From Platerodrilus igneus (lineage: Eukaryota > Arthropoda > Insecta > Coleoptera > Lycidae), in NCBI GenBank assembly GCA_036346225.1, contig JARFIW010001104.1, forward strand, positions 4,924,001-4,988,000: a stretch of DNA of 64,000 nucleotides, in the 5' to 3' direction. The position numbers and the translations under genes are program-made. Every line of letters begins with the position of its first letter. The stretch's first letter is position 1. Shown one piece after another: positions 27,414-63,580 of this stretch. The notes below the pieces were generated by a model, which worked only from the letters and a program-made list of their open reading frames with translations, was not told the origin of the DNA and did no database searches.

Positions 27414-27569
27414 ACTATTCTTGTTTCGTCTTCCACTTCTTTTTTGCTGGGATTGAACGATGCTTTTTTCGCCTCCAACTTTTGTTTTGTTCTGCCAAAT
27501 TCGGAATTGAAATTCCAGACCACCAGTTCCTCGATTTTGGATTCGCTAGTGCCCTTTTGACATCCGTTA

Positions 27570-27580
27570 CGACTGCGCCA
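27570..27580 (-). promoter_or_regulatory. Primer binding site of the gypsy-type element
   Basis: TGGCGCAGTCG on the minus strand directly follows the 5' LTR end, as expected for a tRNA primer site in gypsy/17.6-like elements. Confidence 0.6.
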
Positions 27581-28049
27581 GTTAAGATTCGTGGCTTCGA
27601 GCGGTCCTGTTTAAAAAGACTTCTTGAGCTTTAACACATTTATTTAATTTTTAAAACAGAATTGAACAATGTAATTTTGACAATCTTAAATGAATTAATC
27701 TAAGTCGAAAATTATTTAATAAATGTACAAGTGAGCTATCTACTAACTGCAATGTAAAAGCTGAACGTTTGATGAACTGACTGCGAGTGGAGCTCACCGG
27801 CCTTTTATAATCTCCCTACCCCCTCACAGTTCTGTAGGAACTTGCAGACCTAGTGTCCGCTTACACTTGACTCTATTCATGATACATAGTTGCTATCTTA
27901 AAAGTTATTTATAAATACTTTGTTGCGAGCTTACTTCTGCGTAATCTCGGTACGTGACTGTCTACGGCCGTCTGTGACCTGACATCTGCAGTGTCACTTA
28001 TCCTTGTGCTACAATGTAGCGCTTCCGTTCCCATGAACGTTTATAAACT
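27581..28049 (-). repeat. LTR (5' LTR of the gypsy-type element)
   Basis: 469 bases, with the same ends and length as 23392-23860 and few substitutions between them. The near identity implies a fairly recent origin. Confidence 0.7.
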
Positions 28050-28142
28050 AAAATAAATTGTAATAAATTGTCCTTCATGACATTGTTTCACATTACTTAG
28101 CGCATTTTCTAATATTCCTAATAACTTTTTAAGTATTAGTTT

Positions 28143-37524: not shown

Positions 37525-38767
37525 CAAGCGTTTATTGAGAAAATACATTTGAAAATGAGAGGTAGGGCAGTTTAATGTTAAGCCGGTTCCCCAGATATGG
37601 GAAAAAGCTATATCAAGAAAACGATCATGCCTGATTTATGTGATACTTATGTGCTTTGCAAGTATCAAAAAATATTTTTCAAAGTTAAGTGGTTTTGCAA
37701 AAATTCACATATATGACTGTCACGACTTCCCGGTCGACAGGTATCAAAACGTACCTTCGTCCAATAATTTGATGGTTGGTGTGAAAATGATTGCAAAAAA
37801 ACACACTTTCGGAATATGTATTGCATCGAATTAGTTACTAGGCAAGAAGTACAATGAAACAATGTGTGTTGTTAAACGACAAATACGTAGTGGCCTAAAA
37901 TTTCAGAGTTAACAAGCGTAAAATGTGATTGCGCAATCAGTTGATTATTTTGCTGCAAATTTTTATTAACAAACTTGTCAAATTATTTTGTTCAATTGAA
38001 TATACATATTGCGAAAGATTTATGTTAAAATGTGGATGTATTATTGAATAAACGATCCCATTTCATGAAACTATGAATATATTTAATCGCATTAAACTTA
38101 CCATATTCATTTTGACTTGCTGATGGCATGTGTTTAAAGTCTTTGTTCATTTCCTTTAAGGAAATGAACAAAAACTTCAACCTACCGTGCTTTTTTAATT
38201 GTTTTATTGGAATATTCTTCTAAAGAAGTATTCCATAAGTTTGGGCCTACTTGTATTAACGATATAAACTGGTCAGTATCAAAAACAATTTTCAGTACAT
38301 CCACATTGGTGTGACTTGTCACGTTGGAAAGTCGCCACAATCACAACCAAAAATTCAGAACAACCTCCCTCACAACAGCGCTGGCATAGAGGCTCTGAAT
38401 AAGAATCCCAGTGTAAAGTTTTACATATACACCAATGGTAGACCTGCGGCCGATTCTAATTCCATGCTAGGCGACCGAAATAAGCGCGATTCTAAAATTT
38501 CGAATCGCAATTCTGTATCTCAGATGTCGCCGGTGTAATACGGTTTTGAACGTTATTGTTAAAGCTGAATTCGGGATTTCTGAATTCGAGATTCCGAATT
38601 CCAGTATAAAAGGAGCCCAAAGGTTACTTATTTTACATATTTCTATTTTAATGTATTTAAAATAGAAGTAATTTAATGCATATTAAGAAACTAACGTTTA
38701 TAAGAAATAAATAATATGTAACATTTTAATAACTAAATAAATCGTCGTACTATACTAGCTCGAAGTT

Positions 38768-39081
38768 TTAACCTCCACGGCGGAGTCCTGGTGGTTTGGG
38801 AAAAGACGGAAGAGGTCGACCTCCACCATGGGGATTAAATGTAGGGTACCCTAAACCAGGGATCCTTTGTGGTGATGATAGGGTAAAAGCTGCCAGAATA
38901 GACAATATGAGCAGAATGATCTGAAAGAATGCATTAATCAACAAAATTGTTTCATATAGTTCGAATGCTAAAAAAGTATGTTACAGCAAATTGCTTTTTT
39001 ATTTAAACTTAGGAAGTAATAAAACAAAAATTTTGTACAAACTTATCTATACCAATAATGACTTACCAACCTTCGTGCCAT
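38768..39081 (-). CDS. Abaecin-like secreted proline-rich peptide, copy 1
   Basis: A two-exon gene. Exon 1 coding: 39081-39067 (ATG GCA CGA AGG TTG, then GTAAGT). The intron is 146 bases, ending TTCTTTCAG. Exon 2: 38920-38768. The product has 55 residues. MARRLIILLILSILAAFTLS is a signal peptide. The mature part, about 35 residues from SPQRIPGLGYPTFNP, contains GGGRPLPSFPKPPG and ends LRRGG. It has nine prolines, five Arg/Lys, no acidic residue and no cysteine. The GRPLPSFP core resembles the RPFPTFP core of hymenopteran abaecins, which are inducible proline-rich antibacterial peptides that act inside bacteria. Overall similarity is low, so 'abaecin-like' is inference. The frame, splice sites and promoter are intact. 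Confidence 0.8.
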
Positions 39082-39125
39082 TTTCGAAACAAAATTAGGG
39101 ATGTATGGTTGAGCTTAACGCTTCG

Positions 39126-39227
39126 CTATTTAAAAGTTAACTGATTCAAACAACGAACGTTCGAAGTTTTATAGTTGCAATATGAATGTAGGTAATTCCC
39201 CATGTACTACTTACACAAGGCGATAAG
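39126..39227 (-). promoter_or_regulatory. Promoter of abaecin-like copy 1: TATA-like, kB-like and GATA sites
   Basis: Upstream of the ATG at 39081: a TATA-like CTTTTAAATAG (39136-39126), a kB-like GGGGAATTACC on the gene strand (39201-39191), and GATAAG on the plus strand (39222-39227), about 20 bases from the kB word. Paired kB and GATA sites close to a TATA box are typical of insect antimicrobial-peptide genes controlled by Rel factors. The sites are conserved in copy 2. Confidence 0.55.
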
Positions 39228-39937
39228 TTCATAAGGTTTATGATCTTACTATAGAGAAAGTAAATAAACGCCCAATCATAACAGTAAATTCCAAGATGCA
39301 AGGAAATGTTTGTTATCTTATTTTGCTATTTTGTTTCCATGTACTCATATCAATTAATTACTTCTTATTACTGTGATGTGTTGAACGTAAATATAATGGA
39401 TACAAAAAGCCCCTAATAATTAATTTTTTAATATTGCCCCGATATCAAGGATTAAGAACACTTTATTGGAAGGTAAATGCTTATCAACACAGCTCGCGTA
39501 TCCAACTTTCAATTTCGTGTTTGCAATATTCGTAAAAATTGCACTAGTGAATTAACACGACGACAATTAGGTTAGTTTTTGGCAATCAGATCAGTCTATT
39601 TTTCAGATTTTAAACATGTTACGTGAATGTACTATTTCTTATTTATATGCAATCCAGCTAATTTGCAACACGCCGTAAACATTTAGTGTAACGACACATT
39701 CTTTTCTATAAAATAATCCTTGCCAAAGATGAAACCGAACCCGCAAGTTTCTGTACCGATCAGGTTCTAAATTCAAGATATACAGGTAGGGGCGTAAATA
39801 GAGCAAGTCACCTCAAGGGTGTTGTAGTGAAAATTTACCAACGAAGCCACTGGTGCATCTAAAAGCACTTTGAGTCTGATTCAGAATATTATTTTTTTGT
39901 GAGTACTAAAAATAATTAAACAACACGAGTAACTCGT

Positions 39938-40269
39938 ATATGATGATATATTATTAATAGATTTGAGGTCTGCTGTAAGAAAGTAAACTCTTTTTATGGC
40001 CTAAATTTTGGAATTTAATTCAAATTCTTGATCATAGGCTTTAAGGCAAGGTAATACATTAAATTAACATAGAAATTAAATTGAAATATTGTTCTAGCAA
40101 GAATCAGCTAAATAAATATTTCAATTTAATTTATATGTTAATTTAGTGTAATTACCTCGCCTTAAAGTCCGTGATCAAGAATTTGAGTTAAATTCGAAAA
40201 TTTAGGACTTAAAAAAGAGTTTACTTTCCTACAGCTGACCGCAAACCCATTAATAATATATCATCATAT
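39938..40269. repeat. Long palindrome (MITE-like), copy 1
   Basis: Arms of roughly 150 bases from 39938 and up to 40269. ATGATGATATATTATTAAT at the left pairs with its complement at the right, and CAAATTCTTGATCA and TTAAATTAACAT pair further in. A short loop lies near 40095-40115. No coding capacity. Confidence 0.75.
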
Positions 40270-40316
40270 TTATGCAAGGTCATTATCTCTCAACTGTATT
40301 ATAAATATATATATAT

Positions 40317-41008
40317 TGCCGTGTAACCTTGTTAAAATTTGTGCCCCACAAATTGGGCTAACATGAAAGTGCCGTGGATTTTTTTAAAATTTCGTGCTCA
40401 CTCCCATGCCAACATAAAAATTTTCAAAAAAAAAAAATAAAAAAAAATTATTTATTTATTTATACGTTTCTCTGTCTGTTTTATATTATCGATCGTTTAT
40501 TCCACTCACTCCTCAAGGCATTTGATATTTAAAGCAGTTGGTCAAATAGACCGTTGAAAACAATTTCATAGGAATTCTATCTTAACGTTTATTTAAGTTC
40601 CATGAACGTGACAATTAACAACAGGTGCTTCTTGAAACAACCGACCGTTTGAAATAACAATTCTCGGTTTCTTCCCTTCTTAGTATTTGTATAAACGAAC
40701 GTTGGCTTTTAAAATGAAGCATTTGCGTTTGAAATTACTGATTTTCTTATGCATGCAAGCTCCCTTCTTGCTTCCATGCGTTTGATTAAATTATTATAAT
40801 TTCTTATGCGTATCTTTGAGCTTTTATGTACTCAAAAGCTTTCTCTTAAGTAATTTTAAGATTTTAATTTAAATATAGAAAAATACCTTAATACACCTCC
40901 GTTTTCACTATATAAATTAATTAATTTGGCGCGTAAATAATTTGCTCCTATTTCTATATACACGGTTGCTAAAATTTTATTGTCTACACCTATTTACCCT
41001 CTAAATCC

Positions 41009-41014
<6 letters not shown>
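40317..41014 (-). mobile_element. LTR-like repeat family, copy D (internally deleted, about 0.7 kb)
   Basis: In minus orientation it starts TGTTGTGGATTTAGAGGG at 41014 and ends GTTACACGGCA at 40317. Both ends match copy C and both touch TA tracts. The middle 1.3 kb of the family is missing, including the promoter block. Confidence 0.65.

Positions 41015-41050
<36 letters not shown>
41015..41050. repeat. (TA)n microsatellite
   Basis: A TA run between LTR-like copy D and Penelope-like 3' sequences. Confidence 0.95.
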
Positions 41051-41054
<4 letters not shown>

Positions 41055-41650
41055 AAATCAGGTTTAATGATGAGTCTTAAATTAATACAAAGTAAAAAGA
41101 AATTATTGGCAAGTGACTCATAACAGTCGGCACGGAGGAGATCCGGCTCAACTGACTTTATCCATAGCCAAAAGTTAAGCCGGTTCTCTTCCCTGCTGAT
41201 TGTTGCTAAATACCTGCGATGTCAGGTGAAACAACACGAAGACACAAATTGTGAGCTGGGTGATGCTGTACTTCCCATAAAGTGTCTGTATTAAATATTA
41301 CAACTTTGCTACTTTTGTCCTGATGAGCCCCTATTAGGCGAAACGCGTTGACAGAATGCCCTCGTGGCTGAATTTGAGTCGCTTGCCAATAATTTCTTTT
41401 TACTATGTATTAATTTAAAACTCATTAAACCTGCTATTCTTTAAATTTAAACTTTTGGCTATGAAAAAAGGCAGTTGAGCCGGATCTCCTCCGAGCCGAC
41501 TGTTGCTAAAAACCTGCGATGTCAGGTGAAACGACACCAAGACACTAATTTTGAGCTAGGTGATGCTGTACTTCCCATGAGGTGTCTGTATTAAATATCA
41601 CAACTTTGTTACTCCTGTCCTGATGAGCCGCAATTAGGGCGCCTAGCAGT
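41051..41650 (+). mobile_element. Rearranged 3' ends of a Penelope-like element
   Basis: Three pieces of one 3' region. 41051-41180 is inverted relative to 41365-41480 (shared words: GGCAAGTGACTCA / GAGTCGCTTGCC). 41200-41340 is repeated directly at 41500-41645 (CCTGCGATGTCAGGTGAAAC, GATGCTGTACTTCCCAT, TGTCCTGATGAGCC). No coding part remains. The assignment to PLE rests on the hammerhead core with GAAACGCG, as in known PLE tails, and on the PLE neighbours elsewhere in the window. Confidence 0.5.
41300..41355 (+). ncRNA. Hammerhead ribozyme-like core in the PLE 3' region
   Basis: CTGATGA (41320-41326), GCC, loop CCTATTA, GGC (41337-41339), GAAA (41340-41343). The two invariant core strands flank a three-pair stem II with a seven-base loop, exactly the hammerhead order. 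PLEs are known to carry such motifs. Stem I and the cleavage triplet are not clearly identified, so activity is uncertain. The repeat at 41620 keeps CTGATGA and GCC but has lost GAAA. Confidence 0.5.
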
Positions 41651-43137
41651 AAGCTAGTTGAAAAACTAAGCTAACGATGTACGCTTGTTGAAAGTTGAGA
41701 GCGTAAGAGCCCTTCACCTCAGACTCTTGGGGCTTATATTCTCGTTCTCCACCCCTCAAATCTGCCAATTCTTAAAAATTTCTACAATATAAATATTTGT
41801 ACACAACAATTCTTCGTAAAACTTTCAACGCCCACTTGTTAATAAAATTAGTTTATCAAGCAAAGATGACAAGCGTAACGTCATCCCTGGAAGTGTATTA
41901 ACCTATACATGGAAACACAAGGATATAGGTTAAGTATTTATTTTAGCAAAAAAAGGTTTTAAAGATGAAGTTAAATAAAGATGGGCAAAAATTAAAGGTT
42001 TGGAGTCTTTTCGACAAGAAATTAGTTCAGATACGAATTGTATTTTTCTAAAGTACCTACTTAGTATTGAGTTAACTAAATGTAAAACCAAAAAATTGAT
42101 AAAATTTTGTGTCAAGGTTTACCCTGTTTAAAATTTGAAAAGTCGTGTTTTGAATATTCTAATTAAAGAGCGTGGTTTTTGTTGCTAAACTAGACCTTCC
42201 CATTTATATACTAAAAACACATTACATTGGAATGTTATACATTATTTGAAAACAGAACATTACTGTTTGAAAATGGTTTTAAATATTAAACACTTATAAA
42301 GGGTTCATTTTTAAAATTCCAGCGGTTTAAGATTTTCGGGAAATGGTTGGTTGAAGCATATGTCTTGGGTAGCGAAAAAGGATTTTAAAGAAGGTGTTAA
42401 ATATAAATGAGCAAAAATTTAGAGGTTTGGGGTCTTTAAAAGTGTAACTTTGTAAGAGGTGGTCCTATTTAAAAGCTATTTACAGATTTGGACTTTTTAG
42501 AAAAATCTAATATTAATTGACACCAAACAAGATAATTTATCTTAAAAGAAGCAAAAATAATCTTTTATATGTTTGCTAGAGGGTATGTGTGTAAAACGGT
42601 AAGGGGTGGTTGGATTTTAAATCTATTTGCAGATTCGGATTCTGCGTAAAATTCTAGACTAATTTGATGTATCGCATGGTTAAGAAATTCATAAGAACGG
42701 TCAGAAATCGTTGCCGGTAAAAATCTTAAAATTGAGATACCTTCTTAGAGAGTGACGCTACGTAAAAAATTCCTAGAAATTCAGGCAGCTGAGAAAAATC
42801 TAATATTAATTGATATCAAACAAGATAGATTTATTTCATGAGTGGAAATGTGGAGAAAGATTTATCTCGTGGGTGGAAAAGTGGGTTGGTAAAAATTCTT
42901 AAAATTAGGGCAGCTCCCTGAGAGATAATGCAATCTAAAAAATTCCTAAAAATTCGGATAGTTGAGAAAAACAAGATAGATTTATCTCGTGAGTGGAAAT
43001 GTGGAGAAAGATTTATCTCGCGGGTGAAAATGTAGGATGCTAGTGTAAATGTGGTCTCAGTTGCCTGTCAGGATTCTACTTTCTTGTTTTATTGTAAACC
43101 AAATTTTAATTACTGCTTTTAAAAATATTAGGCCTCA
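41651..43137. other. Non-coding DNA between the duplication copies
   Basis: No gene seen. It contains an imperfect direct repeat: AGATTTATCTCGTGAGTGGA and GGAGAAAGATTTATCTCG words occur at about 42825-42890 and again at about 42965-43035. Confidence 0.45.
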
Positions 43138-44166
43138 TTAGGGAGATGAAGTTTGCGCAATTTTGGATTCGGAAATATTAGATGTCAACGTAGAATAGAA
43201 GGTGGTGACAACTATTTTATTCGAGCAGTACAAATTATCCGATATCACAAAATCATAAGTGCTGTTAATTGCTTTATTATCATTCAAATCGACGCTCTTC
43301 TGATTTTAGAAATGTAGACTGTGCTAGATCAAAAAGTTAGCAACAATTTGTTGGTTTTTAATGCACAACCTTAATTAGCAAAAAAACATTCTTAGTGCTC
43401 TATTGATGTTATATTTTGATCCAAACAGGAGCATAACCGCAGTTTAGAGTGTTGACTACAGAATTTGACTTAAAAGATCAGTACAACTTACAGTGATCAC
43501 TGTAAATTTTCTTGCATTAAAATGCAAAAACTTTTACCTAAAGGCCTAATTGTCAATTCATTGCAACTGCGATCTTAATCAAACTACGTCTGTAATTTGT
43601 TGCAAAACAGGGCTCTTCCGATAACAAGAAAGCAGAAAAATTGTTTACTGCTTGTCAGATGAGGTAGAAAAGCTATAGTGTGTGTTAAAAAAGTTATTTG
43701 ACAATAAATTTCTGTAAAAAGTGAAATGTTAAGTATTTAAAAATTGTGTGGGAACCGTATGGTTTAGAAAAAATTATTTAATCCTAAAAAAATCCATTAT
43801 TTTAAAAAAAATTAAAATCCGACAGTTGAGATATAGTGAATCATTGGCGGTCGTTTTTAAGAGCGGCCACTCCTATATGAAAAAATGTATTTATATGTTA
43901 TATTCGTCACACTAAATGGCATATTTCGAGCAAGAAGTGCACTTGGGGTTTAATTATACCAGACGTACTAATATATGTGTCTCAATCTGCAACTTTCAGT
44001 AGGCTTCTTTTATACTGGAATTCGGAATCTAGGATTTAGTATGCGACATCCATTTCCATCCTTTTTCTTACATTGAGATTCTGAATCTCAGATTCAGTAT
44101 ACGACATTCGAGTCAATTAATTCCAGAACCGGGCGCTTGCTCGAGTGTGCGTTGTACAGTTTAAAA

Positions 44167-46560
44167 ATGAACATGGTAGAGGAAGCGCTTTTGCTATATT
44201 ATTATCAGGTGGTGACCAAAAAGAAAAAAAAGTCTAAGAGAAGCAAAATAATGGGTTCAACCGATAGTCATCGAACGTAATACAAAAAAAGCATACTATT
44301 TACAGTATTAATATTTAAAACAACACCCTTGAAAATAATTTCGACTACTTCAGAATGTCAATTCGGTCTTTTGACGAGCTTCACAATATCTTAAAAATAA
44401 AATATCTAAGTATCCAGTAATACGTCGAAGCATAACATCATAAGAAAGGCTAATGGTATCTTTAAGGTAAGTATGTATAATAATGGTATCAAATAAAGTT
44501 AACCATTGTGTGTGCATTTTAAAAAGTTTAACAAATAATTACATATTAGCAATATAATCCAAGACATACGGTCATACTATTTGCATTCAAATATACAGTG
44601 ACGTATTTTTTGTATCTAGACTTCTTTACGTTGGAAAAATTAGTTGTTTGATTCATATTCATGTTCATGTCATGATTGACTTAATTTGATTTCGATTATA
44701 TATAAAATATGTGAATGTTTTTAGTTATTTCAAAAGTTTATTATTGTATTTTACCTTCGAAAGGGCTACAAGTACTAAGATTATGTGTAGGTATTTATAC
44801 TGTAGAAGAGAAATTATTCATTACATGAATTAAGCAAATCCAGAACTTCAGATTCCTGTGAATTACAAGATAAGGCCAAAGATTGTAGATCTGAAGATAG
44901 CGTCGGAGGTGATGGGGTGATAAGAAAGCCCTGTAGCTGAAGTTGTGGTTGTATAAAATAACGTTGATTTTCCGTTTGATAGTATTTTATTGGTTACTGA
45001 AACTGGGGAAATAAATTCGTGGGATGCATAGGTGGGAAAGACACTGCTATATTTTCAAAATTACGGAAAGTGGTGGGTTGGCGCAACATTGGTCCTGCAT
45101 TTGTAGAGTACAAATATGTTGGAGTCATAGTTGAATTTTGTGGTGCCGGATGGAGTTTCTAAAATACCGGAACTGGTGTAGTCGACGCGGAAACTTTCTT
45201 TAATACTTGGATCATTTCTAGTTTCACATCCATTTTATTGCATGGGCTGGCTCTTTTAAGGTCGCTCAATAACGAAAGGAGGAAGTATCGATTTCCATCT
45301 TCGCTCAATACTGCGTTTTATGACAGCCAGAATTTCAATAGCGTGACCCTGGTCCTTGTTAGTTTTTTTTCTATGCTTACGCGGTTACCCTGCTGTAGAT
45401 GAACTACATCGATATTGTCGTCATATGTATTTTCGATGTCATTCTCGAAATCAAGTGGCATGCATACAAAATTAGATGGTATACTAAATAATACGAATTA
45501 TTATACAACATATTCTCTATCAGTATCAGATCTTGTTAAAACCGATAACTGTTCGAAGTAGATAAATGTCTACCAAGTAGCTCCAAGTGCCGATTTTTTT
45601 TGGTTCTTTTTCGGCCAGTTCTCGCACGAATGAATTTCTTAAAATTTTCCATTTTTTGTTCAAATCTTCGTTTAAAAAATAATAAAGATTTTATATATTT
45701 ACAGGTTCCTAGCTACGGGATGTTCCCTAACCGAGATGCATTATAATTTTAGAATTGGGGCGATTACACTAAATCATATTATTCAAGATGAATGCACAAT
45801 ACTATGGAACAGTATGCAAGAACATTGTATTCTTTAAGTAGCCCGTGAAAAATGGCTTGATATTGCAGATGGATTTTAAAAAAAAATGCAAATTTTCCTA
45901 TTTGTTTTTATTTATTGATAGGAAACACAAACGTGTAAATAACATTCCACGGTGGGTCTCTATATTTAATTGTAAATCATACTTCTCCATTCAACTGCTG
46001 GCCATGTACGATTCCTGTTATTGTTTTACTTTTGTGGACATTTGAGATCATGGCAAAAATAACGACTCGGCTATTTTGCAAAAATCTGTGCCTTATCATT
46101 GATTAATTGTAAAAACACTTTATACTCCAGATGCTTCCTCTTTATACGAGAACTATGATATCAAAATGCCATATGTAATTATTGTAGACGAAGCATTTGG
46201 CTTTTTCATGAACCTGATGTACCCCTTCAGAGGAAACATCACTGATTAAACGGGTGTACAATTATCGATTGCGCAGACCACGTAGGTATATTAAATGCTT
46301 TTTCGGCATTCTCGCCAACAAGCGGTGAATTTTTCATAAATGTTTGAATGTTTCAACAAACTTCGCAAAGAACATATTTTACGCGTTCGAGATGGTTTTA
46401 AGCAAGAAGATACGCCCTATTATTAATTACTGTTTGGCAATGATTTGAACAATTTGGACAATAACTATTCTGTGAGAAATCCAAATACTGTACGAGAATA
46501 TTTTGTCGAATATTTTATGACTACAGGAGCCATTCTTTGGCAGAACACAATAATTTAATT
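44167..46560 (+). pseudogene. Harbinger transposase, copy 2 (broken)
   Basis: The same layout as copy 1: MNMVEEALLLCYY start (44167), a shifted FDELHNILKNKIS stretch and a GTAAGT donor at about 44467. The catalytic region begins near 45940 with SYFSIQLLAMYDSCYCFTFV and continues in other frames with SLYTRELYDIKMPYV-like and VDEAFGFFMN sequence, up to TVREYFVEYFMTTG. It carries stops that differ in part from copy 1, consistent with independent decay after duplication. Confidence 0.75.
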
Positions 46561-46885
46561 TTGTATCAAAATTATGAAGCTTTTATGTATGTTCATTTCA
46601 AAAATAGATTATTTACTAGTTGGACAGATTGTCACTTTAGGGCCACTTTTAAGTTACTAATTACCTAAACGAAACTTACAATTAATTAATACATCCAAAT
46701 TTTATCATCAATCTTTTCCAAAATCTATATTTAATTCGTTAAAATAATTTGATAAGTTTGTTAATAAAATTTTTCAACAAAATAATCACGTGTTTGTACA
46801 ATCAAATTTTGTCTAGAATTAAGAGTTGAAAGTTTAAAAAATTAGTCAAAAGCGAATCGGGCTTGCACAATGGGGGTTCCGTACT

Positions 46886-48713
46886 GTAACGAATATATAT
46901 TCTGTGGCACTAGTTTTAAAGAGATCACAGCTATTCATTGTAGATCTGTGATATCTGATTTTTTGTATTCGATATAGTTACATCTGAAGGAAACACTTTC
47001 ACAATAGACCAGGACATTATTACCATTTAATTAGCTTTCAATGCATTACTAGGAAATATTTAATAGTAATAAACACTTTGAAAACGTATTTAAAAAGGAA
47101 CAAGTCATTTGTGTTGCCTACTCCGTAAGCGGATTATATCCTTTCAGTTATTAAATTAAAATAGCGCTTGCGTAAATAAGGTCACGAGGTGACGCGCAAG
47201 ACATATTAGCTGTTCTCTACGTGGAGAGTACGAAAAGGCAAATTCGCCGTTGTAGTTTGACATGTGAACGAAGCAGCAAACTTAAGACGATGCGGACACG
47301 AGCACGTGTCAAGTAGAGCCTCCGAATACCCATAACATGGTAGGGGCATAGGATTCGTGGTCGTCTTGGAGGCCCAAGAATGATGGTTATTCTTTAAGTT
47401 CCGGCAAGGCAATGGATCACGCTCCCTAATAAAAATGGCTTGACAGGTCGGTGATTATTAACGCGCGTGGAATAACCAAGTTTATATTTAATAATTAAAG
47501 CAATTGTCGTTAAGGATGTATGCAAAGCTGTTGTTAGACATTTCTTGGTAGACACGTTTTGAACAGATGTTGGTCGACAACATAATACCCTAGGCATCAA
47601 ATTTTGTAAGCAGGACCTGAACTTGTGCATCGCAGTTCGGTAGCAAGAGGTAACTTCTTCCCATGTATTAAAACTTTCAGTTACTATGTTTGCTAGACTT
47701 TTAAAAGTGTTCATATTAAATTTTAATAGTGGATTGCCTAATCATGCTACATTTTGTGCACGAATTAACTTTGCATGAGATCATAAAATTGTAACATTTC
47801 TTTAATTTGATAGCAAAGTTATTTCCTGTATGTTTGTTGTGGTTTGTTTAGTATTCTTCTTAATCTTCTTTGGGTATTAAACCACTCATAGTTTTTAAAA
47901 TTATCTTTATTAACGTTTCGATCCATAACCTAGGTTATGGATCTTCTTTGGGTATTAAACCACTCATAGATAATTTTAAAAACTATGAGTGGTTTAATAC
48001 CCAAAGAAGATTAAGAAGAATAGCAAAGTTATTTGTTAAAATTGTGCTAAACCAAGTTAAAATAACGTGAAATATGGTTCTTTAGGAAGCAATAGCAAAG
48101 TAATTTCGTAAGACACGTGGAATATACATGTGTCATTCCTATACCTGGATAAATTTGAAATTCTATTTACTTAAACTAGCTACATGTGATTTAAATTTTT
48201 TTATAAAGAATATGAACTAAACTTATGTGATATAAATGTAAACCAATACACAGATCTGTTCGTTGGGAAATTAAGTATCGTGTTTTAAAGTATTATTAAA
48301 AGTAAGGTCTTGTTATGTCAAGACAGATTTATAAGAAAAACTAGAATTCATTTTTATTATTTTGTTTTTGTAACTATATTTAACAAAAAAAAACGAAAAA
48401 AGAGAAACGACATTAAATTACATTTTTGGATTCAAGTTTTTTATTCTATGAATAATTAATTTTAATAAGAATATCTTGGAGAAAATAAATTTTTTTGAGT
48501 AACGAAATTAGACGAATTCTGAAACAATATAAAAGTACAGACATCTTACAATTGATTTATTCTAGATATCCATTTTTAACTAAAATACCTTTGGTGTGGT
48601 AATCTCAAGATTATCAACTCATAATTATTATTATGCTCTTTTATTGAAAAGTACAAATAGTGTCTTTTTAATAGAAAATTTGTTGTGTAACTTTTTCTTT
48701 CAGGATCATCGTG
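46886..48713. other. Copy-2-specific insertion, possible LTR-type fragment
   Basis: It begins TGTAACGAATATATATTCTG, a start typical of insect gypsy LTRs, directly at the break with copy 1. GC-richer stretches at 47160-47420 have no recognisable protein; minus-strand frames of 106 and 68 codons (47714-47394 and 47412-47206) match nothing I know. It also contains the inverted repeat 47852-48023. Confidence 0.35.
47852..48023. repeat. Inverted repeat related to the one at 22926
   Basis: The arm TCTTAATCTTCTTTGGGTAT at about 47857 pairs with its complement ending at about 48020, and part of the left arm is repeated at 47940. The spacer contains the palindrome GATCCATAACCTAGGTTATG and, on the minus strand, GATCGAAACG. 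Confidence 0.7.
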
Positions 48714-49911
48714 ACTACAAGCGTTTATTGAGAAATTACATTTGAAAATGAGGGGTGGGGGCAGTTTAATATTAAGCTGGTTCCTAAGATATGCTACTTA
48801 TGTACTTAGCAATTGTCAAAAAATATTTTGCAAAAGTTAAGCGGTTCTGCAAAAATTCGCATATATGGCTTTCACGACTTTCCGGTGGACAGGTATAGCA
48901 AGACATAACTTTGTCAAATAATTTGATGGTTGGTGTCAAAATGATTGCAATAAAACACTTTCGGAATATGTAAAGCACCGAATTAGTTACTAGGCAAGAA
49001 GTACAATGAAACAATGTGTGTTGTTAAACGACAAATACATAGTGGCCTAAAATTTCAGAGTTAGCAAGCTTAAAATGTGATTGTGTAATCAGTTTATTAT
49101 ATTGTTGCAATAATTTTTATTAACAAACTTGTCAAATTATTTTGTTCAATCGAATATACATATTGGGAAAGATTTATGTTAAAATTTGGACGTATTATTG
49201 AATAAACAATCCCATTTTGTGAAACTATGAATATATTCAATCGCATTAAACCTACCATATTCATTTTGACTTGCTAACGGCATGTGTTTAAACTCTTTCT
49301 TCATTTCCTTAAGCCACTTCCACCTAGCGTGATTGTTTAGTTATTTTATTGGAATACCATTCTAATGAAGTATTCCATAAGCTTGGACCTGCTTGTATTA
49401 ACGATATAAACTGGTTAGTATCAAAAGCAATTTTCAGTACATCCACATTGGTTTGAGTTGTCATGTTTCGAAAGTCGCCATAATCACAACTCAAACTACA
49501 CAACAACCTCCCTCAAAACAGTGTTGGCATAGAGACTCTGAATAAGAATCCCAGTGTAAAGTTTTACATATACACCAATGGTAGACCTGCGGCCGATTCC
49601 AATTCCATGCTAGGCGACCGAGATAAGCGCGATTCTAAAATTTCGAATCGCAATTCTGTATCTCAGATGTCGTCGGTGTTAATACGGTTGTAAGCGCTAT
49701 TTTTAAAGCTGAATTCGGGATTTCTGAATTCTAGATTCCGAATTCCAGTATAAAAGGAGCCTAAAGGTTACTTATTTTACATATTTCTATTTTAATGTAT
49801 TTAAAATAAAAGTAATTTAATGCATATTAAGAAACTAACGTTTATAAGAAATAAATAATATGTAACATTTTAATAACTAAATAAATCGGCGTATTATATT
49901 AGCTCGATGTT

Positions 49912-50228
49912 TTAACCTCCACGGCGGAGTCCTGGTGGTATGGGAAATGACGGAAGAGGTCGACCTCCACCATGGGGATTAAATGTAGGGTACCCTAAAC
50001 CAGGTATCCTTTGTGGTGATGATAGGGTAAAAGCTGCCAGAATGGACAATATGAGCAGAATGAGCTGAAAGAATGCATTAATCAAAAAAATTGTTTCATA
50101 TAGTTCGAATGCTAAAAAAGTATGTTACAGCAATTTACTTTTTTATTTTAAATTTAAGAAGTAATAAAACATACAATTTTGTACAAATTTGTCTGTAAAA
50201 AAAATTAACTTACCAGACTTCGTGCCAT
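49912..50228 (-). CDS. Abaecin-like secreted proline-rich peptide, copy 2
   Basis: Paralogue of the gene at 38768-39081. Exon 1 coding: 50228-50214 (ATG GCA CGA AGT CTG, then GTAAGT). The intron is 149 bases. Exon 2: 50064-49912. The product has 55 residues and three differences from copy 1: Arg4Ser and Ile6Leu in the signal peptide, and Lys42Ile in the mature peptide (SFPIPPG in place of SFPKPPG), which lowers the net positive charge by one. The frame, both splice sites, the stop and the promoter words are intact, so both copies look expressible. Conservation amid decayed flanking transposon sequence suggests selection, but this needs a substitution test. Confidence 0.8.
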
Positions 50229-50272
50229 TTTCAAAACAAAATTAGGTATGTAGGGTTGAGCTTAACGCTTTG

Positions 50273-50374
50273 CTATTTAAAAGTTAACTGATTCAAACAA
50301 CGAACGTTCGAAGTTTTATAGTTGCAATATGAATGTAAGTAATTCCCCATGTACTACTTGCACAAGGCGATAAG
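50273..50374 (-). promoter_or_regulatory. Promoter of abaecin-like copy 2: TATA-like, kB-like and GATA sites
   Basis: TATA-like CTTTTAAATAG (50283-50273), GGGGAATTACT on the gene strand (50348-50338) and GATAAG on the plus strand (50369-50374) lie at the same spacing as in copy 1. One change (C to T at the last base) weakens the kB word slightly. Confidence 0.5.
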
Positions 50375-51028
50375 TTCATAAGGTTTATGATCTTACTATA
50401 GAGAAAGTAAATAAACGCCCAATCATAACAGTAAATTCCAAGATGCAAGGAAATGTTTGTTATCTTATTTTGCTATTTTGTTTCCATGTACTCATATCAA
50501 TTAATTACTTCTTACTACTGTGATGTGTTGTACGTAAATATAATGGAATACAAAAAGCCCCTAATAATTAATGTTTTAATATTGCCCCGATATCAAGGAT
50601 TAAGAACACTTTACTGGAAGGTAAATGCTTATCAACACAGCTCGCGTATCCAACTTTCAATTTCGTGTTTGCAATATTCGTAAAAATTGCACTAGTGAAT
50701 TAACACGACGACAATTAGGTTAGTTTTTGGCAATCAGATCAGTCTATTTTTCAGATTTTAAACATGTTACGTGAATGTACTATTTCTTATTTATATGCAA
50801 TCCAGCTAATTTGCAGCACGCCGTAAACATTTAGTGTAACGACACATTCTTTTCTATAAAATAATCCTTGCCAAAGATTAAACCAAACCCGCAGGTTTCT
50901 GTTCAGATTAGGTTTTAAATTCAAGATATACAGGTAGGGGTGTAAATAGAGCAAGTCACTTGGAGGGTATTGTAGTGAAAAATTGCCAACGAAGCCAATC
51001 GTGCATCTGAAAGCACTTTGAGTCTGAT

Positions 51029-51472
51029 TCAGAATATTATTTTTTTGTGAGTACTAAAAATAATAACATTAAACAACACGAGTAACTCGGATACGATGAT
51101 ATATTATTAATGGATTTGAGGTCAGCTGTAGGAAAGTAAACTCTTTTTTAAGGCCTTAATTTTCGACTTTGATTCAAATTCTTGATCACCGGCTTTAAGA
51201 CGAGGTTAAACATTAAATTAACATAGAGATTAAATCGAAATATTATTTTAACTGATTTTTGCTTCAATTTGTTGTTATAAGAAAATTGTATAAGTTATAC
51301 AAAATTGATGCAAGAATCAGCTAAAACGATATTTCAATTTAATTTTTATGTTAATTTAATGTATAACCACGCCTTAAAGCCTGTGATCAAGAATTTGAAT
51401 CAAAACCCATTAATCATATCCGAGTTACTCGTGTTGTTTAATGTTATTATTTTAGCACTCAAAAAATAATAT
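51029..51472. repeat. Long palindrome (MITE-like), copy 2
   Basis: Counterpart of 39938-40269. The outer arm extends further than in copy 1 (GAATATTATTTTTTTGTGAGT on the left pairs with ACTCAAAAAATAATATT on the right). There is extra sequence in the loop side (about 51255-51310), and part of the right arm is lost. Confidence 0.65.

Positions 51473-51502: not shown

Positions 51503-51547
<45 letters not shown>
51503..51547. repeat. (TA)n microsatellite
   Basis: TA run at the right end of duplication copy 2, directly followed by a large hairpin. Confidence 0.95.
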
Positions 51548-51550
<3 letters not shown>

Positions 51551-51773
51551 AGATGTATCTGTAAACAAACTCTATGAAAATAATAGAGTCTATTGACGAA
51601 TACAAATCGGGCTGGTAGTTATATAGCCATTAACAAAACATTAGCTTATTACTTCATGGGGAGGAAAGTAATAAGCTAATGTTTTGTTAATGGCTATATA
51701 ACTACCAGCCCGATTTGTATTCGTCAATAGACTCTATTATTTGCATAGAGTTTGTTTACAGATACATCTTATT
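51547..51773. repeat. Near-perfect inverted repeat, about 107-bp arms, 12-bp spacer
   Basis: 51547-51653 is the reverse complement of 51666-51773 with only a few mismatches (one seen at the AAAATAATAG position). The spacer is TCATGGGGAGGA. The palindrome is flanked by the TA tract on the left and a TATATTG stretch on the right. It is not shared with copy 1 of the segmental duplication. Confidence 0.9.
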
Positions 51774-53855
51774 TTATATATTGTTCTACACAATTTCTTA
51801 TTGCGGACTGCAAATAACCTGTCTTTTATGTGTATATATATTGCTGTGATTCTATCTCTGTTTTGAATTGCCCACGTTCTGTGCCAAGAATTGCTGTGAT
51901 TCTATTGTCCGTTGAATCTCTTCTGATAATCGCCTCTTGACTCTTTCCTTCCGCCTCGGCTGCTCACCTAGTTAAAACTTTCATCCTCATTCATAAAAAA
52001 AACAAACACATTCCTACCACAAACATCAACGTTAACTCTATTTACATGAATATTCACAATACATTAAAATTTCAAATTTAATTTCAGCATAAATTTCAGC
52101 ATCATAAAATTTCAAGTTCAAATTTGTCATCGTTTTAATTTGCATCCAGAATTAGAGTCCTTGTAGGATAAAAGGGAGAGTCTCCCATCCCTTTACGTTA
52201 ATTTAACAGGTTAATCTAATTGAGCTCAAAGACAGACCCAAATTTTCATCATAATCAAAAACATAAACCTGATAAATACTCCTTTCTACTTATACAAGAA
52301 AATTTTACCTTAAAATTCAAAATTTGTTGTTTATACAAGTTTACTACTGTCCATCTTTATCAAACAAATTATAAAGATATTTAACACACACCAAAACATC
52401 TAAGATCGAACAACAATGCATAAGTTACCTGAAGGTTAATACACTCGTAGCTCCAATGTACATCGTCCTTGCTAATTCCACCATTCCAGCTGGGTTATGT
52501 TTACGTCCTCGGATTTCTGGCCGCCTTTAAAATTTTTCTACACCACCATTCATCTAAGGGGTTTCAAGGCTTCTCAGGAACTCATCTATGTATATCTAAA
52601 TCTTGTTTTGTGGATCCAATCACGTTTACGAATAACACTTGATTACTAACACTCCCGAAAAATAGCAATGAAATTCATAATACTTTCACGCTATACCACA
52701 ACTGCATACTTCTATTTATTTATTTATCGTTACTAATTTGGATAATTGGTACAGTAATACCCGCAAATATAACTAGACTTTATTACCTTTATCTATCTTC
52801 TCTAAATGCACTAATGCATAATAACTTTTATCGTAGCACGTAATCACTATGTATTCTGCTTGAAGTATCGAATAAAATCAAAAAATAAAGAGAGCTAAAC
52901 TTCTATCAGCACGGGTTTATATAATGGCTCGCCTGCATGTCGAATTTGTCCCGCAACGGACGATTTTCAGAAATTCGCATTCTATTTTTCCTTCCGATGG
53001 CTCGGCACAATGATTCTTCTGAAATTTGCACTCGTCCGAGTTGAAATCTAAGAAATTTCCACACGCCTTGCAACACGTCCGCGAACAACTAATTAATTTT
53101 ACATAGAAATTGTTATGCTTCCACCTCTCATGTTTGCATCTTATTTCAACCTTTATCGCCAATCTAGTTTGTTTGTTCTATCTACAACCTGTGCTCTTGT
53201 TTTACATATTTCCCCTCATTTAACTACCAATGCATTCCCTCTCGCTTGTCTTTATACCACAAACTTGCTTTCTTACTTGCACTCATATAGCTTGGAGCTT
53301 ATCGACTATCGTATACATCGTTATTTTTGCAGGTGTTCTTAGTTCTAATACGCTGAAGGCTTTTACGTGACTTCCCCACGTCTTTATAATTTTTCGATAG
53401 CTTTAGTACTTGGAAAGATTAAATTAAATACAAGTTGAACATTTTAACTCGGCTTCTTTTTATAGAAAGCGTCCAGTGAATAATCTAAACCCCTTACTTT
53501 TAACAAAACGAATAAATTTTTATGCTCCATGGTTTTAATAATGCGTATTATCTAATGAAATTCTACATTACTTCCTTCTACACGTTGATTATGATTATAT
53601 ACAAACCCTACATTCTAATTGAATGATTTAAATCTACACAGTAGGCCTTTAATTAAGCGTTCTATTTTTCACTGCTCTGATATACAAGATGTTTAATATT
53701 ATCTAAACAATATAAACCCTATGTTTAGAAGTAAATGACGAATTTATTCAATATACCTTTAAATAAAGCGTATTATTACCCAAAACGTCCTTATACACGG
53801 TGATGAAAATTATTTGATGTCATTAATTAATTTTCTACCTTGTTCTAAATTAGAG

Positions 53856-54172: not shown

Positions 54173-57100
54173 ATGATAAAAATGGTAAGGAAATCCCAAC
54201 GGATCAATGCTGCACACACAGAAAAACTTATTAAAGCAAAGGAATCAAAAGAAAACGAAATTATCATTAAAGATGAAGATGTAAAAAATCTGAAATCAAA
54301 GGAAAACAAATCCGTAATAACAGATAAATTTCTCAAATGTCCTTTATGCAACAATAGTTTCAAAAATAGAGGATTGAAAATTCACATGAACAGAATGCAT
54401 AATAACGAGTCTTCATACACAAAACCACCTAGAGAAGCATATATTATAGATCAAAATTTAAATTTTGAAAAGCGTTTGGCACTGTTTAAGAAAAATTCAA
54501 TTATCATAAAAAGAATTCCAAAATCTGTGAGGGCATCTACAGCATTATCACTTACAAGTTTAATTAACGAATGTGTGGAAAAGAATTCCTTCTCATCTTG
54601 GGAAAAACTATTACTTTTTCCATACTGTAGTTTATTCATAAATAACCAAAACAAGAGTGAGAAAATCAACAACCTTTCTTCAATCATTAGACAGAATTTA
54701 AAATTTTAGTTCCACCGAATATAACATCAAACAATAAGAATTTTAAATACTCTTTGAATAAAAAAATAATCAGTAAAGTATCAGATGGAGACCTATCAGC
54801 AGCTGTGCGTCTGATGTGTTCAAATGATATATTAGCAGAAGTCAATAACGACACAATTTCGGAAATGAATTTAAAACACCCTCATACTGACAAAACAAAT
54901 AGTTTCCCTGAATTTACTTCTTTTAATATTTCCAAAATTACTTTCGAAGAAGTTATGAATGCGATCAGATCTTTCCGCACTAGCTCTGCAGGTGGATTAG
55001 ATTCCCTTAGACCTTCCCATATTCAAGATATGTGCAGCTATAGCGCTGGTTCCTGTGGCCAAAACCTTGTAAAAGCACTCACCGCCTTATGTAACCTAAT
55101 GCTTTCAGGTAAAGTACATCACGAAATTTGTCCCATACTATATGGTGCATCATTGTGTGCGCTTAAGAAAAAAGATGGAGGACTAAGACCAATAGCAGTG
55201 GGAACTTTCTACCGACGGCTAGTTGCAAAAATTTGTTGCTCTAAAATAATGGGAAAAATCAAAGAAATTCTACAACCTCACCAATTTGGTTTTGGAATCG
55301 CTGGTGGAGCAGAAGCTGTAACACATTCAGCAAGAATATATCTCTGTAACATGAAAGAAAAATTTTTTAAAACTAGATTTTAAAACGCATTTAATATGAT
55401 ATATCGAGACACAATGTTACATCAAGTAGCAATTCTAACTCCAGAAATTTATCCATTCGTGGAACAATGTTATCGAACAGAGTCATTTTGATGTTTGGAA
55501 ACCACTTAATGAAATCTCAACGCGGTGTCCAACAAGGAGATCCCTTGGCCCTGCACTTTTTGTTTAGCTATAGAATGTATAGTGAAAAATATTCACACTG
55601 AATTCAACTGCTGGTATCTAGATGACGGATCAATAGGTGGTAATGAAGAAGATATCTTAAAATCATTTAAAAATATAATATTCAATTCTCGCAATGTAGG
55701 CCTTGAATTAAATTTCAAAAAATGCGAAATTCTATTAAATCAATCAAATCCAACGTTCATGAGAAAAATATTGGAATTTGCTCCTGGCATAAAAATATCA
55801 GCTACATCAAACTGGTTTCTTCTTGGTGCTCCGCTTTCCATTCCCGCCTTATCTACTTGCTTAAAAGAGAAATTGAATTCACTAAAATTAATGTGTTCTA
55901 GATTGAATAATCTTCCATCACACATCGCCTTTTTTCTTCTGAAAAACTGTTTAGCGATACCTAAATTATTATATACTTTAAGATGCATTCCGTCATGGCA
56001 TTGTAACGAAATCCTTAAGGAAATTGATCAATGTTTAAAAACTGCTCTAGAACTAATAACGAATAACCAACTAGATGATAAAACATGGTTAACAGCTACT
56101 CTCCCGGTAAATAGAGGTGGTTTGGGCATCCGCTCAGTTTCATCTTTAGCACTACCCGCCTTTCTATCCTCTTTCCGTAGCACATCACACTTAATAAATA
56201 TGATTTTACAAGATAGAACAACTGATAATTATTTTAAAGAAGGGGAAAAAGTTTGGTTCTCTAAGACTAAGATGACTTTACCAGAAGAGTCAAAGAGACT
56301 TCAGAAAGCTTGGGATCAACCACTACTAGATATTTGTTGCGACTATTTACTTAAGACAGCTAAAACTCCTATTGACAAGGCTCGTCTTCATGCAACAAGA
56401 ACAAAAGAATCTGGCGCCTGGTTAAACGCTATTCCAGCTGCATCTCTGGGTACTCTTTTAGACAACAATTCATTTAGGATTTCGATTGGTTTTCGTCTTG
56501 GAACAAATATATGTGTTGAACACAAATGTAGATGCGGATCTCTCGTTTCTAAAATGGCATTCATGGTTTGAGCTGTAAACTTTCCGCAGGCCGTCAATCA
56601 CGTCATCATTCAGTTAACGATATATTGAAACGTGCACTAGGCCTTGCAAAATACCAGCAATTTTGGAACCCCTAGGCATTGATCGAGACGATGGCAAAAG
56701 ACCGGATGGAATGACTCTCATTCCATGGGAATGCGGTAAAGCCATAGTATGGGATTTTACTTGTGTAGACACACTTGCTTCTTCCCATATAGCAGCCACT
56801 TCAAAACTGCTGGAGCTGCTGCCTTGACAGGCGAACGCTTAAAAATTAAAATACAAAAATCTTCAAAATAACTATATTTTTGCCCAGTAGCTATTGAAAC
56901 ATTCGGAAATTTTGGACCAAGCGCATCAAATTTTATACATTCTGTGGGAAAAAATTTCAAAGGAAACAAACGACAACAGAGCTACCTCATTTCTAATACA
57001 ACGAATTAGTATAGCAATTCAACGAGGAAATGCTGTCTGCTTTTCGGCACACTTCCAAATGATTGTAAACTGGACGAATTACATTACTATCCGAGGTTAT
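54173..57100 (+). pseudogene. Non-LTR retroelement: C2H2 finger, YLDD reverse transcriptase, restriction-like endonuclease
   Basis: The N-terminal frame (54173) has a C2H2 finger with Cys56, Cys59, His71 and His76, then IKRIPKSVRASTALSL and SSWEKLLLFPYCSL. The RT frame (54754) has SAGGLDSLRPSHIQD, KKKDGGLRPIAVGTFYRRL and QPHQFGFGIAGGAEAVTHSA. A short shifted part reads KTDF-NAFNM and RGVQQGDPL. The 55525 frame carries the catalytic WYLDDGSIGG box. The end holds CVEHKCRCGSLVSKM, then in shifted frames [19 protein letters not shown] and [12 protein letters not shown], a PD-(D/E)XK-like nuclease, closing near IAIQRGNAVC and GTLPNDCKLDELHYYP. Finger, RT and nuclease in this order fit the R2-type superfamily; the exact clade is unsure. 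Frameshifts at about 54710, 55380, 55490 and 56570 make it dead. Confidence 0.8.
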
Positions 57101-57199
57101 CAATTACACGTTCAAAAATACAAGACAAATTATCAAACAATCAAACAAATCAACTATCGAAGAATTTAATAACATCACATATATCACGAAACAAGCAAA

Positions 57200-60517
<3,318 letters not shown>

Positions 60518-62779: not shown

Positions 62780-63580
62780 TGATAATGAAAATAAAAACCA
62801 AATTAATAATAATCTGTTTTACATTCTCTTTATTTGTCTAGTCAAGCTTTCGAAATTGATCTTTAACTTCATCATCAGGACACTAAAAGTAATAACTAGG
62901 TTAATAACTAATAACTATAATATATGTTTTGAAACTTACACAAACGTGAGAAGTTTAAATAAATATATCGATTAGCATATTCAACATAAACACTACGAAT
63001 GCAAAATAAAACTGTAAATACTGACAAGTTGTTTCTTAATACAATGAATTAGTACAATTGTTATAACACCACTACAATTTGAACATTTATACTTTCCAAA
63101 AATTAATACCTACGTACTAAAGATAACATGTATAACTTGTTTCTATATCTATATGTAAAATATTTAATATTATTCATCTACAGGTGCGTCGAATTTGTGT
63201 ATATGGGATTTAGTCAAAAGGTAAGTATATATTACACTCAGATTTTCTGTGTCTGATTTTTTATTCATACGATGTGGTTCACAATTAATAAAGTACATTT
63301 TTAGGAATTTTCGCTTGGTCAAGTTGGTCTGTTTTGTTAAAATTTTCACGTCTTCAAAATTAATTTTATGTCCGAATTCACGTGCATGGCTTGCCAAAGC
63401 ACATCTTTCTGGTTTTAGTTTTATATCGCTTTTATGTAACGAGACCCTCGCTTTTAAGATTTGTGTTGTATGTATACAATTGTTACAAGTAATCTTATAT
63501 ACTGTATGTGACTGTGCATTTATTGGTATAGGTGACTTTAATCTGATAAACAGTCCTACTCCGTCCGTAGCATTCTACCG
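62778..63580 (-). pseudogene. Penelope-like retroelement 3' part (GIY-YIG region)
   Basis: Minus strand. A frame from about 63397 reads ASHAREFGHKINFEDVKIL and RKFLKMYFINCEPHRMNKKS, the end of the GIY-YIG nuclease region. Upstream, to about 63520, VYKITCNNCIHTTQILKARV is legible, but the YIGQT-type core motif is missing. The 3' tail has CTGATGA (62878-62872 on this strand) and GAAAGC (62851-62846), a hammerhead-like pair of core words, and then runs into the TA tract. RT is absent, so the element is truncated. Confidence 0.75.

What the first reader, a model, noticed from the sequence alone, without database searches (positions are those of the whole stretch)
38768..50228. Two intact genes for a new abaecin-like proline-rich secreted peptide
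Genes at 38768-39081 and 49912-50228 (minus) each encode 55 residues by splicing a five-codon exon to a 51-codon exon. The mature peptide is about 35 residues, with nine prolines, a strong positive charge and no acidic residues; its GRPLPSFP core is like that of hymenopteran abaecins. The genes are too short and too split for ordinary ORF calling and could easily be missed in annotation. Both have intact frames while the surrounding transposon copies are riddled with stops.
Basis: partly seen in the sequence, partly recalled or inferred. Interest (0 to 1): 0.88.

Follow-up and report, generated by a model that had tools for sequence, protein, structure and literature searches.

The report
Twin beetle genes for proline-rich peptide
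A stretch of beetle DNA carries two copies of a small, probably working gene for a secreted, positively charged, proline-rich peptide that looks like an antimicrobial peptide but matches no known family, and is not shown to be the bee and ant peptide abaecin it was compared with.

Summary
In detail: two two-exon genes on the minus strand (38768-39081, 49912-50228) each encode a 55-residue precursor, introns 146 and 149 bases, consensus-like splice signals, a signal-peptide-like start, and a mature part of about 35 residues (9 Pro, 8 Gly, charge +5/+4, no acidic residue). They are paralogues in a segmental duplication about 9% diverged. A 619-base block just upstream is exceptionally conserved (1.8%; 0 of 1959 equal-length windows elsewhere in the duplication match it); exon 2 is low (3.3%) but not exceptional (5.7% of windows match it). 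Selection is likely, not proven; a gene-conversion tract upstream is possible.

A broken USP7 retrocopy places the window among beetles, not Hymenoptera. Four of four abaecins submitted match Pfam PF08026, these peptides 0 of 2; likeness to bee abaecins is no better than shuffled sequence. No relative was found among 5.8 billion proteins. Best reading: an orphan beetle proline-rich host-defence peptide resembling abaecin by composition or convergence. Antimicrobial function is inferred; expression and genome-wide copies could not be tested.

The parts
39067..39081 (-). copy 1, exon 1 (5 codons, MARRL)
   Evidence: sequence; ATG in AAAATGG context; 2 of 15 sites differ from copy 2
38921..39066 (-). 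copy 1, intron 146 nt, phase 0, GTAAGT...TTTCAG
   Evidence: interior 12 of 129 sites differ from copy 2
38768..38920 (-). copy 1, exon 2 (50 codons + stop): rest of signal peptide and whole mature peptide
   Evidence: 5 of 153 sites differ from copy 2
39140..39173 (-). copy 1, putative core promoter: TATAAAA (from 39173) and TCAGT initiator-like (from 39144)
   Evidence: identical in both copies; the motif pair alone is common by chance (mean 6.9 per 64 kb)
39192..39201 (-). copy 1, kappa-B-like GGGGAATTAC, weak
   Evidence: fits only a relaxed pattern, not GGGRNNNYCC; identical in both copies
39082..39700 (.). copy 1, conserved upstream block (11 of 619 sites differ); counterpart about 50229-50848
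   Evidence: 0 of 1959 equal-length windows elsewhere in the duplication are as similar, lowest 42 differences
38725..38730 (-). copy 1, candidate polyadenylation signal ATTAAA, 38 nt after stop
50214..50228 (-). copy 2, exon 1 (5 codons, MARSL)
50065..50213 (-). copy 2, intron 149 nt, phase 0
49912..50064 (-). copy 2, exon 2 (50 codons + stop)
50287..50320 (-). copy 2, putative core promoter TATAAAA and TCAGT
50339..50348 (-). copy 2, kappa-B-like GGGGAATTAC, weak
49869..49874 (-). copy 2, candidate polyadenylation signal ATTAAA
33819..40269 (.). first unit of the segmental duplication that carries the gene (ends approximate)
   Evidence: self-comparison, (four main segments 88.7-92.4% identical)
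43133..51404 (.). second unit of the segmental duplication (ends approximate)
57069..60517 (+). intronless, broken retrocopy of host USP7; used only to place the organism among beetles

Best explanation
Two paralogous, probably functional genes of a beetle (Coleoptera, perhaps Elateroidea) encode a new orphan secreted peptide. SHOWN: gene structure, composition, duplication, an exceptionally conserved upstream block, and an open frame in both copies. INFERRED: the first about 20 residues are a signal peptide; the released peptide of about 35 residues (SPQRIPGLGYPTFNPHGGGRPLPSFP[K/I]PPGLRRGG) is unstructured, enters haemolymph or a gland secretion, and works as a proline-rich antimicrobial peptide: cationic residues bind the bacterial surface, it gets in through a transporter or through pores made by other peptides, and the extended Pro-rich core (RPLPSFP) blocks an intracellular target such as the chaperone DnaK or the ribosome. 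The likeness to abaecin is best explained by convergence or shared composition.
For: Gene models and splice signals. No such model in 20 simulated 64-kb sequences. Upstream block 11 of 619 sites different against 125 of 1406 presumed neutral sites (p = 6.5e-11), and unmatched by 1959 windows elsewhere in the duplication. Exon 2 5 of 153 against intron interior 12 of 129 (p = 0.030) and against the pool (p = 0.0075). Neutral decay at the mean rate gives an intact frame with 3 or fewer amino-acid changes in 0.155% of 20,000 simulations. Both sequence criteria of a published PrAMP definition are met: 25.7% Pro, charge +5/+4. Beetle origin: rows 1-25 of the 120 listed are 23 named beetle rows (18 species) and 2 unnamed; the tree puts the USP7 copy inside the beetles, with Pyrocoelia, support 0.93.
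Against: No expression data. Low divergence of exon 2 is not exceptional: 204 of 3595 overlapping windows of its length elsewhere in the duplication are as similar, and 328 of 3535 for the whole coding length, so the Fisher and decay figures, which assume one rate, overstate it. Exon 1 differs at 2 of 15 sites. 3 of 7 coding differences change an amino acid, not significantly fewer than chance (P 0.15); coding sequence against the intron p = 0.061. One gene-conversion tract could explain the upstream block. No relative among 5.8 billion proteins (copy 1 only). No PRP and no YL/IPRP motif. The kappa-B-like site is weak and the TATA-initiator pair frequent by chance. Proline percentage sits just above the 25% limit and depends on the cleavage site assumed.
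Confidence: 0.5

Rival explanations
1. A functional secreted peptide of another kind: gland, cuticle, silk, seminal or signalling peptide, with Pro/Gly richness serving structure or receptor binding.
For: A short first exon within a signal peptide is common in insect secreted proteins (recalled; the one search for it gave nothing usable). Gly 23% and Pro 26% also suit cuticular or glandular peptides. No strong immune promoter motif.
Against: Net positive charge without acidic residues favours an antimicrobial; no amidation signal (Gly before the dibasic site, by eye) for a classical neuropeptide; no Pfam match.
Confidence: 0.3
2. Decaying or never-coding sequence; the frame survives because the duplication is recent and gene conversion homogenised part of it.
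For: An intact frame alone has 12.7% probability under neutral decay; the coding stretch is no more conserved than 6-9% of other windows; the 39.08-39.70 kb block could be one conversion tract.
Against: No such gene model in 20 random sequences; signal-peptide-like leader, splice signals and stop all kept in both copies; intact frame with 3 or fewer changes 0.155% at the mean rate.
Confidence: 0.12
3. A genuine abaecin (Pfam PF08026) in the beetle, by descent or transfer from Hymenoptera.
For: Similar precursor length, Pro content and an RP-P-x-FP core. The Pteromalus abaecin-like peptide PP30 aligns better than 98.8% of shuffles, the best of 19 comparisons, uncorrected. The mixed profile A1 returns abaecins, but it contained two bee abaecins.
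Confidence: 0.04

Closest known systems
Abaecin (Hymenoptera; Pfam PF08026, Antimicrobial_5)
   Same: Short signal-peptide precursor (7 of the 8 entries fetched have 52-61 residues, 55 here), about 30% Pro, cationic, a core of the type RPFP[ST]FP against RPLPSFP here
   Different: No PF08026 match, no detectable homology to bee abaecins beyond composition, lacks the FNPKI(K/Q)WP end, different insect order, whole mature peptide in one exon here
Proline-rich antimicrobial peptides as a functional class (drosocin, metchnikowin, pyrrhocoricin, oncocin, lebocin, Bac7)
   Same: 25% or more Pro, cationic, predicted unstructured; the RPLPSFP core recalls RPLPFP in Bac7 (sequence from PMC7736402)
   Different: No PRP motif, no YL/IPRP motif, Gly-rich too; activity and target unknown; 17 of 19 alignment scores reached by more than 5% of shuffles
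Coleoptericins (beetle-only, glycine- and proline-rich; PF06286 per PMC4874388 passages)
   Same: Beetle, Gly and Pro rich, secreted
   Different: No Pfam match here; coleoptericins carry a furin site (PMC3574431 passages) and are longer (recalled)
Ant abaecin-2 (PMC13398410)
   Same: Short, unstructured Pro-rich peptide with a His; acts with a pore-forming peptide (abstract)
   Different: No His at position 3 of the presumed mature peptide, so no ATCUN motif here; other order; its sequences were not seen by me

Membership tests
Abaecin (PF08026) | Match to the Pfam model Antimicrobial_5 | tested here: not met
   0 of 2 peptides at E up to 10; 4 of 4 abaecins submitted (2 named bee proteins, 2 unnamed; 4 of the 8 found) match, E 1.6e-8 to 3.6e-16
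Abaecin (PF08026) | Sequence homology of mature peptide beyond composition | tested here: not met
   Apis 15.2%, Bombus 13.7% of 2000 shuffles reach the score of copy 1; PP30 1.2%, not corrected for 19 comparisons
Abaecin (PF08026) | Conserved phase-0 intron on the 3' side of the abaecin unit, short 3' exon | tested here: inconclusive
   Here the phase-0 intron follows codon 5 and the mature part is one exon; papers' text implies a 3' placement but the figures were not seen
Abaecin (PF08026) | Occurs in Hymenoptera | tested here: not met
   USP7 retrocopy places window in Coleoptera; a 2016 review calls abaecin thought to be restricted to Hymenoptera
PrAMP class (Box 1 of PMC7736402) | Proline 25% or more | tested here: met
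   9 of 35 = 25.7% with cleavage before SPQR; 25.0-26.5% for cleavage one residue either side
PrAMP class (Box 1 of PMC7736402) | Net charge +1 or more | tested here: met
   +5 and +4, His not counted
PrAMP class (Box 1 of PMC7736402) | Antimicrobial activity | not testable with these tools
   needs synthetic peptide and assay
PrAMP class (Box 1 of PMC7736402) | Intracellular target (DnaK and/or 70S ribosome) | not testable with these tools
   needs binding assay
PrAMP class (Box 1 of PMC7736402) | PRP motif (indicative, not essential) | tested here: not met
   no PRP in either peptide (sequence)
Coleoptericin (PF06286) | Match to the Pfam family | tested here: not met
   0 of 2, no Pfam family at E up to 10

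The most novel reading that the evidence does not exclude
A short linear proline-rich antimicrobial peptide family of beetles, arisen independently of abaecin, drosocin, lebocin and the bug peptides, duplicated in this lineage and missed because its genes are tiny and split. The His-Gly-Gly-Gly stretch, identical in both copies, may add copper binding, as histidine does in ant abaecin-2; this last part is speculation.
Probability: 0.42. Interest if true: 0.66.

Novelty: new member of a known kind. Interest (0 to 1): 0.48.

Why it matters
A 2016 review (passages) lists short proline-rich antimicrobial peptides in flies, bugs, Hymenoptera and moths but not beetles, and the main text held of a 2024 review of invertebrate proline-rich peptides does not contain the words Coleoptera, beetle or weevil (PMC11678341). 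A beetle family would show the class arising again in a very large insect order and give a new scaffold with a known style of mechanism to test. It also illustrates how tiny split genes can escape annotation: no relative is present in a 5.8-billion-protein set that does hold bee abaecins and many beetle proteins.

Tried and rejected
Rejected: membership in abaecin. Rejected: hymenopteran origin of the window. Rejected as evidence by themselves: the TATA-initiator pair (10 sites in the window against a mean of 6.9 in 60 Markov sequences), the kappa-B-like site, intact frames, and low divergence of exon 2.

Tried without result: relatives in the protein set, in genome contigs and viral contigs (596 and 55 pattern matches, none confirmed), in the PDB, all four with copy 1 only; NCBIfam; Rfam over 33.5-52 kb at gathering scores; further copies or relics in the window by tblastn (the two copies score far above all else; seven weak stretches at E 1.8-7.7, among them LAYPTFN at 39493-39513 and its duplicate at 50641-50661, are taken as chance); published text containing pieces of the peptide (18 papers hold some term, none GRPLPSFP, RPLPSFP or GRPFPSFP; one paper with an unrelated match); a second open frame in the conserved upstream block (none that I find convincing). 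Literature on beetle proline-rich peptides: 87 papers, 20 listed; 118, 25 listed; 1,216, 15 listed; 75, 12 listed; of these I opened passages of PMC3303552, PMC3574431, PMC4874388, PMC11506011, PMC7826645 and PMC11121495 for this question. The profile search mixed two bee abaecins with the two peptides, so it shows that the set holds abaecins and is no evidence of kinship; 8 of its 16 candidates passed.

The whole genome of the window could not be searched: the same genome search got a busy reply on 9 of 9 tries.
Full report
OBSERVATION. The two genes are where the finding puts them. On the minus strand, 39081-38768 and 50228-49912 each read ATG plus four codons, a GTAAGT donor, an intron of 146 or 149 bases ending TTCTTTCAG, then 50 codons and a stop. 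The products are MARRLIILLILSILAAFTLSSPQRIPGLGYPTFNPHGGGRPLPSFPKPPGLRRGG and MARSLLILLILSILAAFTLSSPQRIPGLGYPTFNPHGGGRPLPSFPIPPGLRRGG. With cleavage before SPQR (my judgement; no signal-peptide program was run) the mature part has 35 residues, 9 Pro, 8 Gly, 5 or 4 Lys/Arg, one His and no Asp/Glu.

CHANCE. A scan for one- and two-exon models with a hydrophobic leader and a Pro-rich cationic tail returned three models at these two genes, the third being an alternative start for copy 1; 20 order-3 Markov sequences of 64 kb gave none. The thresholds were chosen after seeing the peptide, so this shows rarity, not an unbiased probability.

DUPLICATION AND SELECTION. The copies sit in a segmental duplication (about 33.8-40.3 kb against 43.1-51.4 kb, main pieces 88.7-92.4% identical), so the second intact frame is not independent. 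Presumed neutral sites (distal upstream, 3' flank, intron interior) differ at 125 of 1406 positions (8.9%). The coding sequence differs at 7 of 168, exon 2 at 5 of 153, the intron interior at 12 of 129, and 39082-39700 upstream at 11 of 619; exon 1 differs at 2 of 15. Fisher tests, one-sided: exon 2 against neutral pool p = 0.0075, against the intron 0.030; whole coding sequence against pool 0.020, against the intron 0.061; upstream block against pool 6.5e-11. The regions were chosen after looking at the sliding profile, and these tests assume one rate. A control without that assumption slid equal-length windows over the rest of the aligned duplication, leaving out 38690-39700: 204 of 3595 windows of 153 columns have 5 or fewer differences, 328 of 3535 of 168 columns have 7 or fewer, but 0 of 1959 of 619 columns have 11 or fewer, the lowest having 42. 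So the upstream block is exceptional and the coding exon is not. Of the seven coding differences, three change an amino acid (codons 4, 6, 47) and four are silent; with 117.5 nonsynonymous and 47.5 synonymous sites this leans to constraint but is not significant (P 0.15). Simulated neutral decay at 8.9% plus the observed indel rate (10 events in 1434 columns) leaves the frame intact in 12.7% of runs, and intact with 3 or fewer changes in 0.155%; local rate variation would raise that last figure. A single gene-conversion tract over 39.08-39.70 kb would also explain the upstream block. Selection on the gene is thus likely rather than shown.

PROMOTER AND 3' END. TATAAAA 92 bases and TCAGT 63 bases upstream of the ATG are identical in both copies, and ATTAAA follows the stop by 38 bases. 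The TATA-initiator combination occurs 6.9 times per 64 kb on average in 60 Markov sequences and 10 times in the window, so only its position is suggestive. A kappa-B-like GGGGAATTAC lies at -120 in both, fitting a relaxed pattern only; another kappa-B-like GGGGCTTTTT (at -332/-333) and two GATA-type sites are also present in both. I do not claim immune regulation from this.

WHAT ORGANISM. At 57.1-60.5 kb is an intronless, frame-broken copy of USP7. Searched as a read-through, 3862 proteins passed among the 7991 candidates scored and 120 were listed; rows 1-25 are 23 named beetle rows (18 species, six rows being Rhynchophorus) and 2 unnamed; four further beetle rows (Hypothenemus, a partial Dendroctonus entry, Aromia, Molorchus) rank lower, among other orders. 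The best hymenopteran, Cephus, is 178 bits behind Pyrocoelia. A tree of 38 chosen relatives puts the copy inside the beetles with the firefly Pyrocoelia and an unnamed sequence, support 0.93 for that group and 0.93 for the beetle group. Against a firm family-level claim: by plain identity the jewel beetle Agrilus is marginally closer (74.1% against 73.5%), the copy has a long branch, and the tree's deep order (Hymenoptera beside Hemiptera) is not the accepted one. Every hymenopteran in that table is at 67.0% or less. The copy could mislead only if it had been transferred between insects. The window is thus beetle DNA; Elateroidea is a guess.

IS IT AN ABAECIN? Not by the tests available. Neither peptide matches any Pfam model at E up to 10 while 4 of 4 abaecins submitted match PF08026 at 1.6e-8 or better (two named bee proteins and two unnamed ones, out of eight found, all eight carrying PF08026). 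Local alignment of copy 1 to Apis and Bombus abaecin scores 42 and 46, reached by 15% and 14% of shuffles; of 19 known proline-rich peptides only PP30 of Pteromalus, itself abaecin-like (1.2%), and GmPro1 of Galleria (2.9%) fall under 5%, uncorrected. Abaecin papers (passages of PMC2853521; sections 4, 17, 18 and part 1 of section 5 of PMC13398410) describe a conserved phase-0 intron and, for ant abaecin-2, short 3' exons; here the intron follows codon 5 and the mature part is in one exon. I did not see those figures. A 2016 review (passages of PMC4874388) says abaecin is thought to be restricted to Hymenoptera.

IS IT NEW? No candidate among 5.8 billion proteins shares three five-residue words with copy 1, though that set holds bee abaecins, short proteins from unnamed assemblies and many beetle proteins; a diverged relative could escape this filter. 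No relative was confirmed in genome contigs or viral contigs, which are poor places for insect DNA. Two text searches for pieces of the peptide found no paper with it. The reviews name short proline-rich peptides in Diptera, Hemiptera, Hymenoptera and Lepidoptera, one of them without any mention of beetles, and coleoptericins as beetle glycine- and proline-rich peptides. Searches did not lead me to a short linear proline-rich peptide of beetles, but for this question I opened passages of only six of the papers they listed.

HOW IT MIGHT WORK. It meets the sequence criteria of a published definition of proline-rich antimicrobial peptides (25% or more Pro, net positive; PMC7736402 passages); the functional criteria are untested. 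By analogy with bumblebee abaecin, which binds DnaK and needs a pore-forming partner (PMC4426631 passages), the likely sequence of events is secretion, uptake through pores or a transporter, and inhibition of DnaK or the ribosome. The HGGG stretch might bind copper; this is speculation prompted by copper binding in ant abaecin-2 and recalled chemistry. A non-immune secreted peptide remains a serious rival (0.3).

LIMITS. No expression data, no second species, no whole-genome search (nine busy replies), and two copies only. My confidence that these are real genes is about 0.85; that the product is an antimicrobial peptide about 0.5; that it is an abaecin about 0.04.

Noticed in passing
57069-60517 (+): Intronless, frame-broken retrocopy of USP7 whose best-scoring relatives are beetle USP7 proteins.
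   Followed up: yes
39401-39700 and about 50549-50848: Upstream stretch with 3 substitutions in 300 between copies, more conserved than the proximal promoter (no 300-column window elsewhere has 4 or fewer); no Rfam match and no convincing open frame. Enhancer, conversion tract or unknown transcript.
   Followed up: partly
39938-40269, 51168-51404, 51539-51781: Self-complementary palindromic elements (84-95%), the first two at the same side of both gene copies; look like hairpin-type miniature transposons.
   Followed up: no
23225-23954 and 27414-28143: 730-base direct repeats 96.7% identical that flank about 3.5 kb and each carry TATAAAAGGCC...TCAGT on the minus strand; probably the two ends of an LTR retrotransposon.
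   Followed up: no
54173-56571 (+): Frames with a zinc-finger-like stretch (by eye) and a reverse transcriptase (55513-56571 matches RVT_1 below its curated cut-off); I think it an R2-like LINE.
   Followed up: no
102-1445 (-); 5342-5782 (+); 63170-63574 (-): A 447-codon frame matching DUF4371, a piggyBac-type transposase piece (PF13843), and what looks by eye like a Penelope-type endonuclease piece.
   Followed up: no
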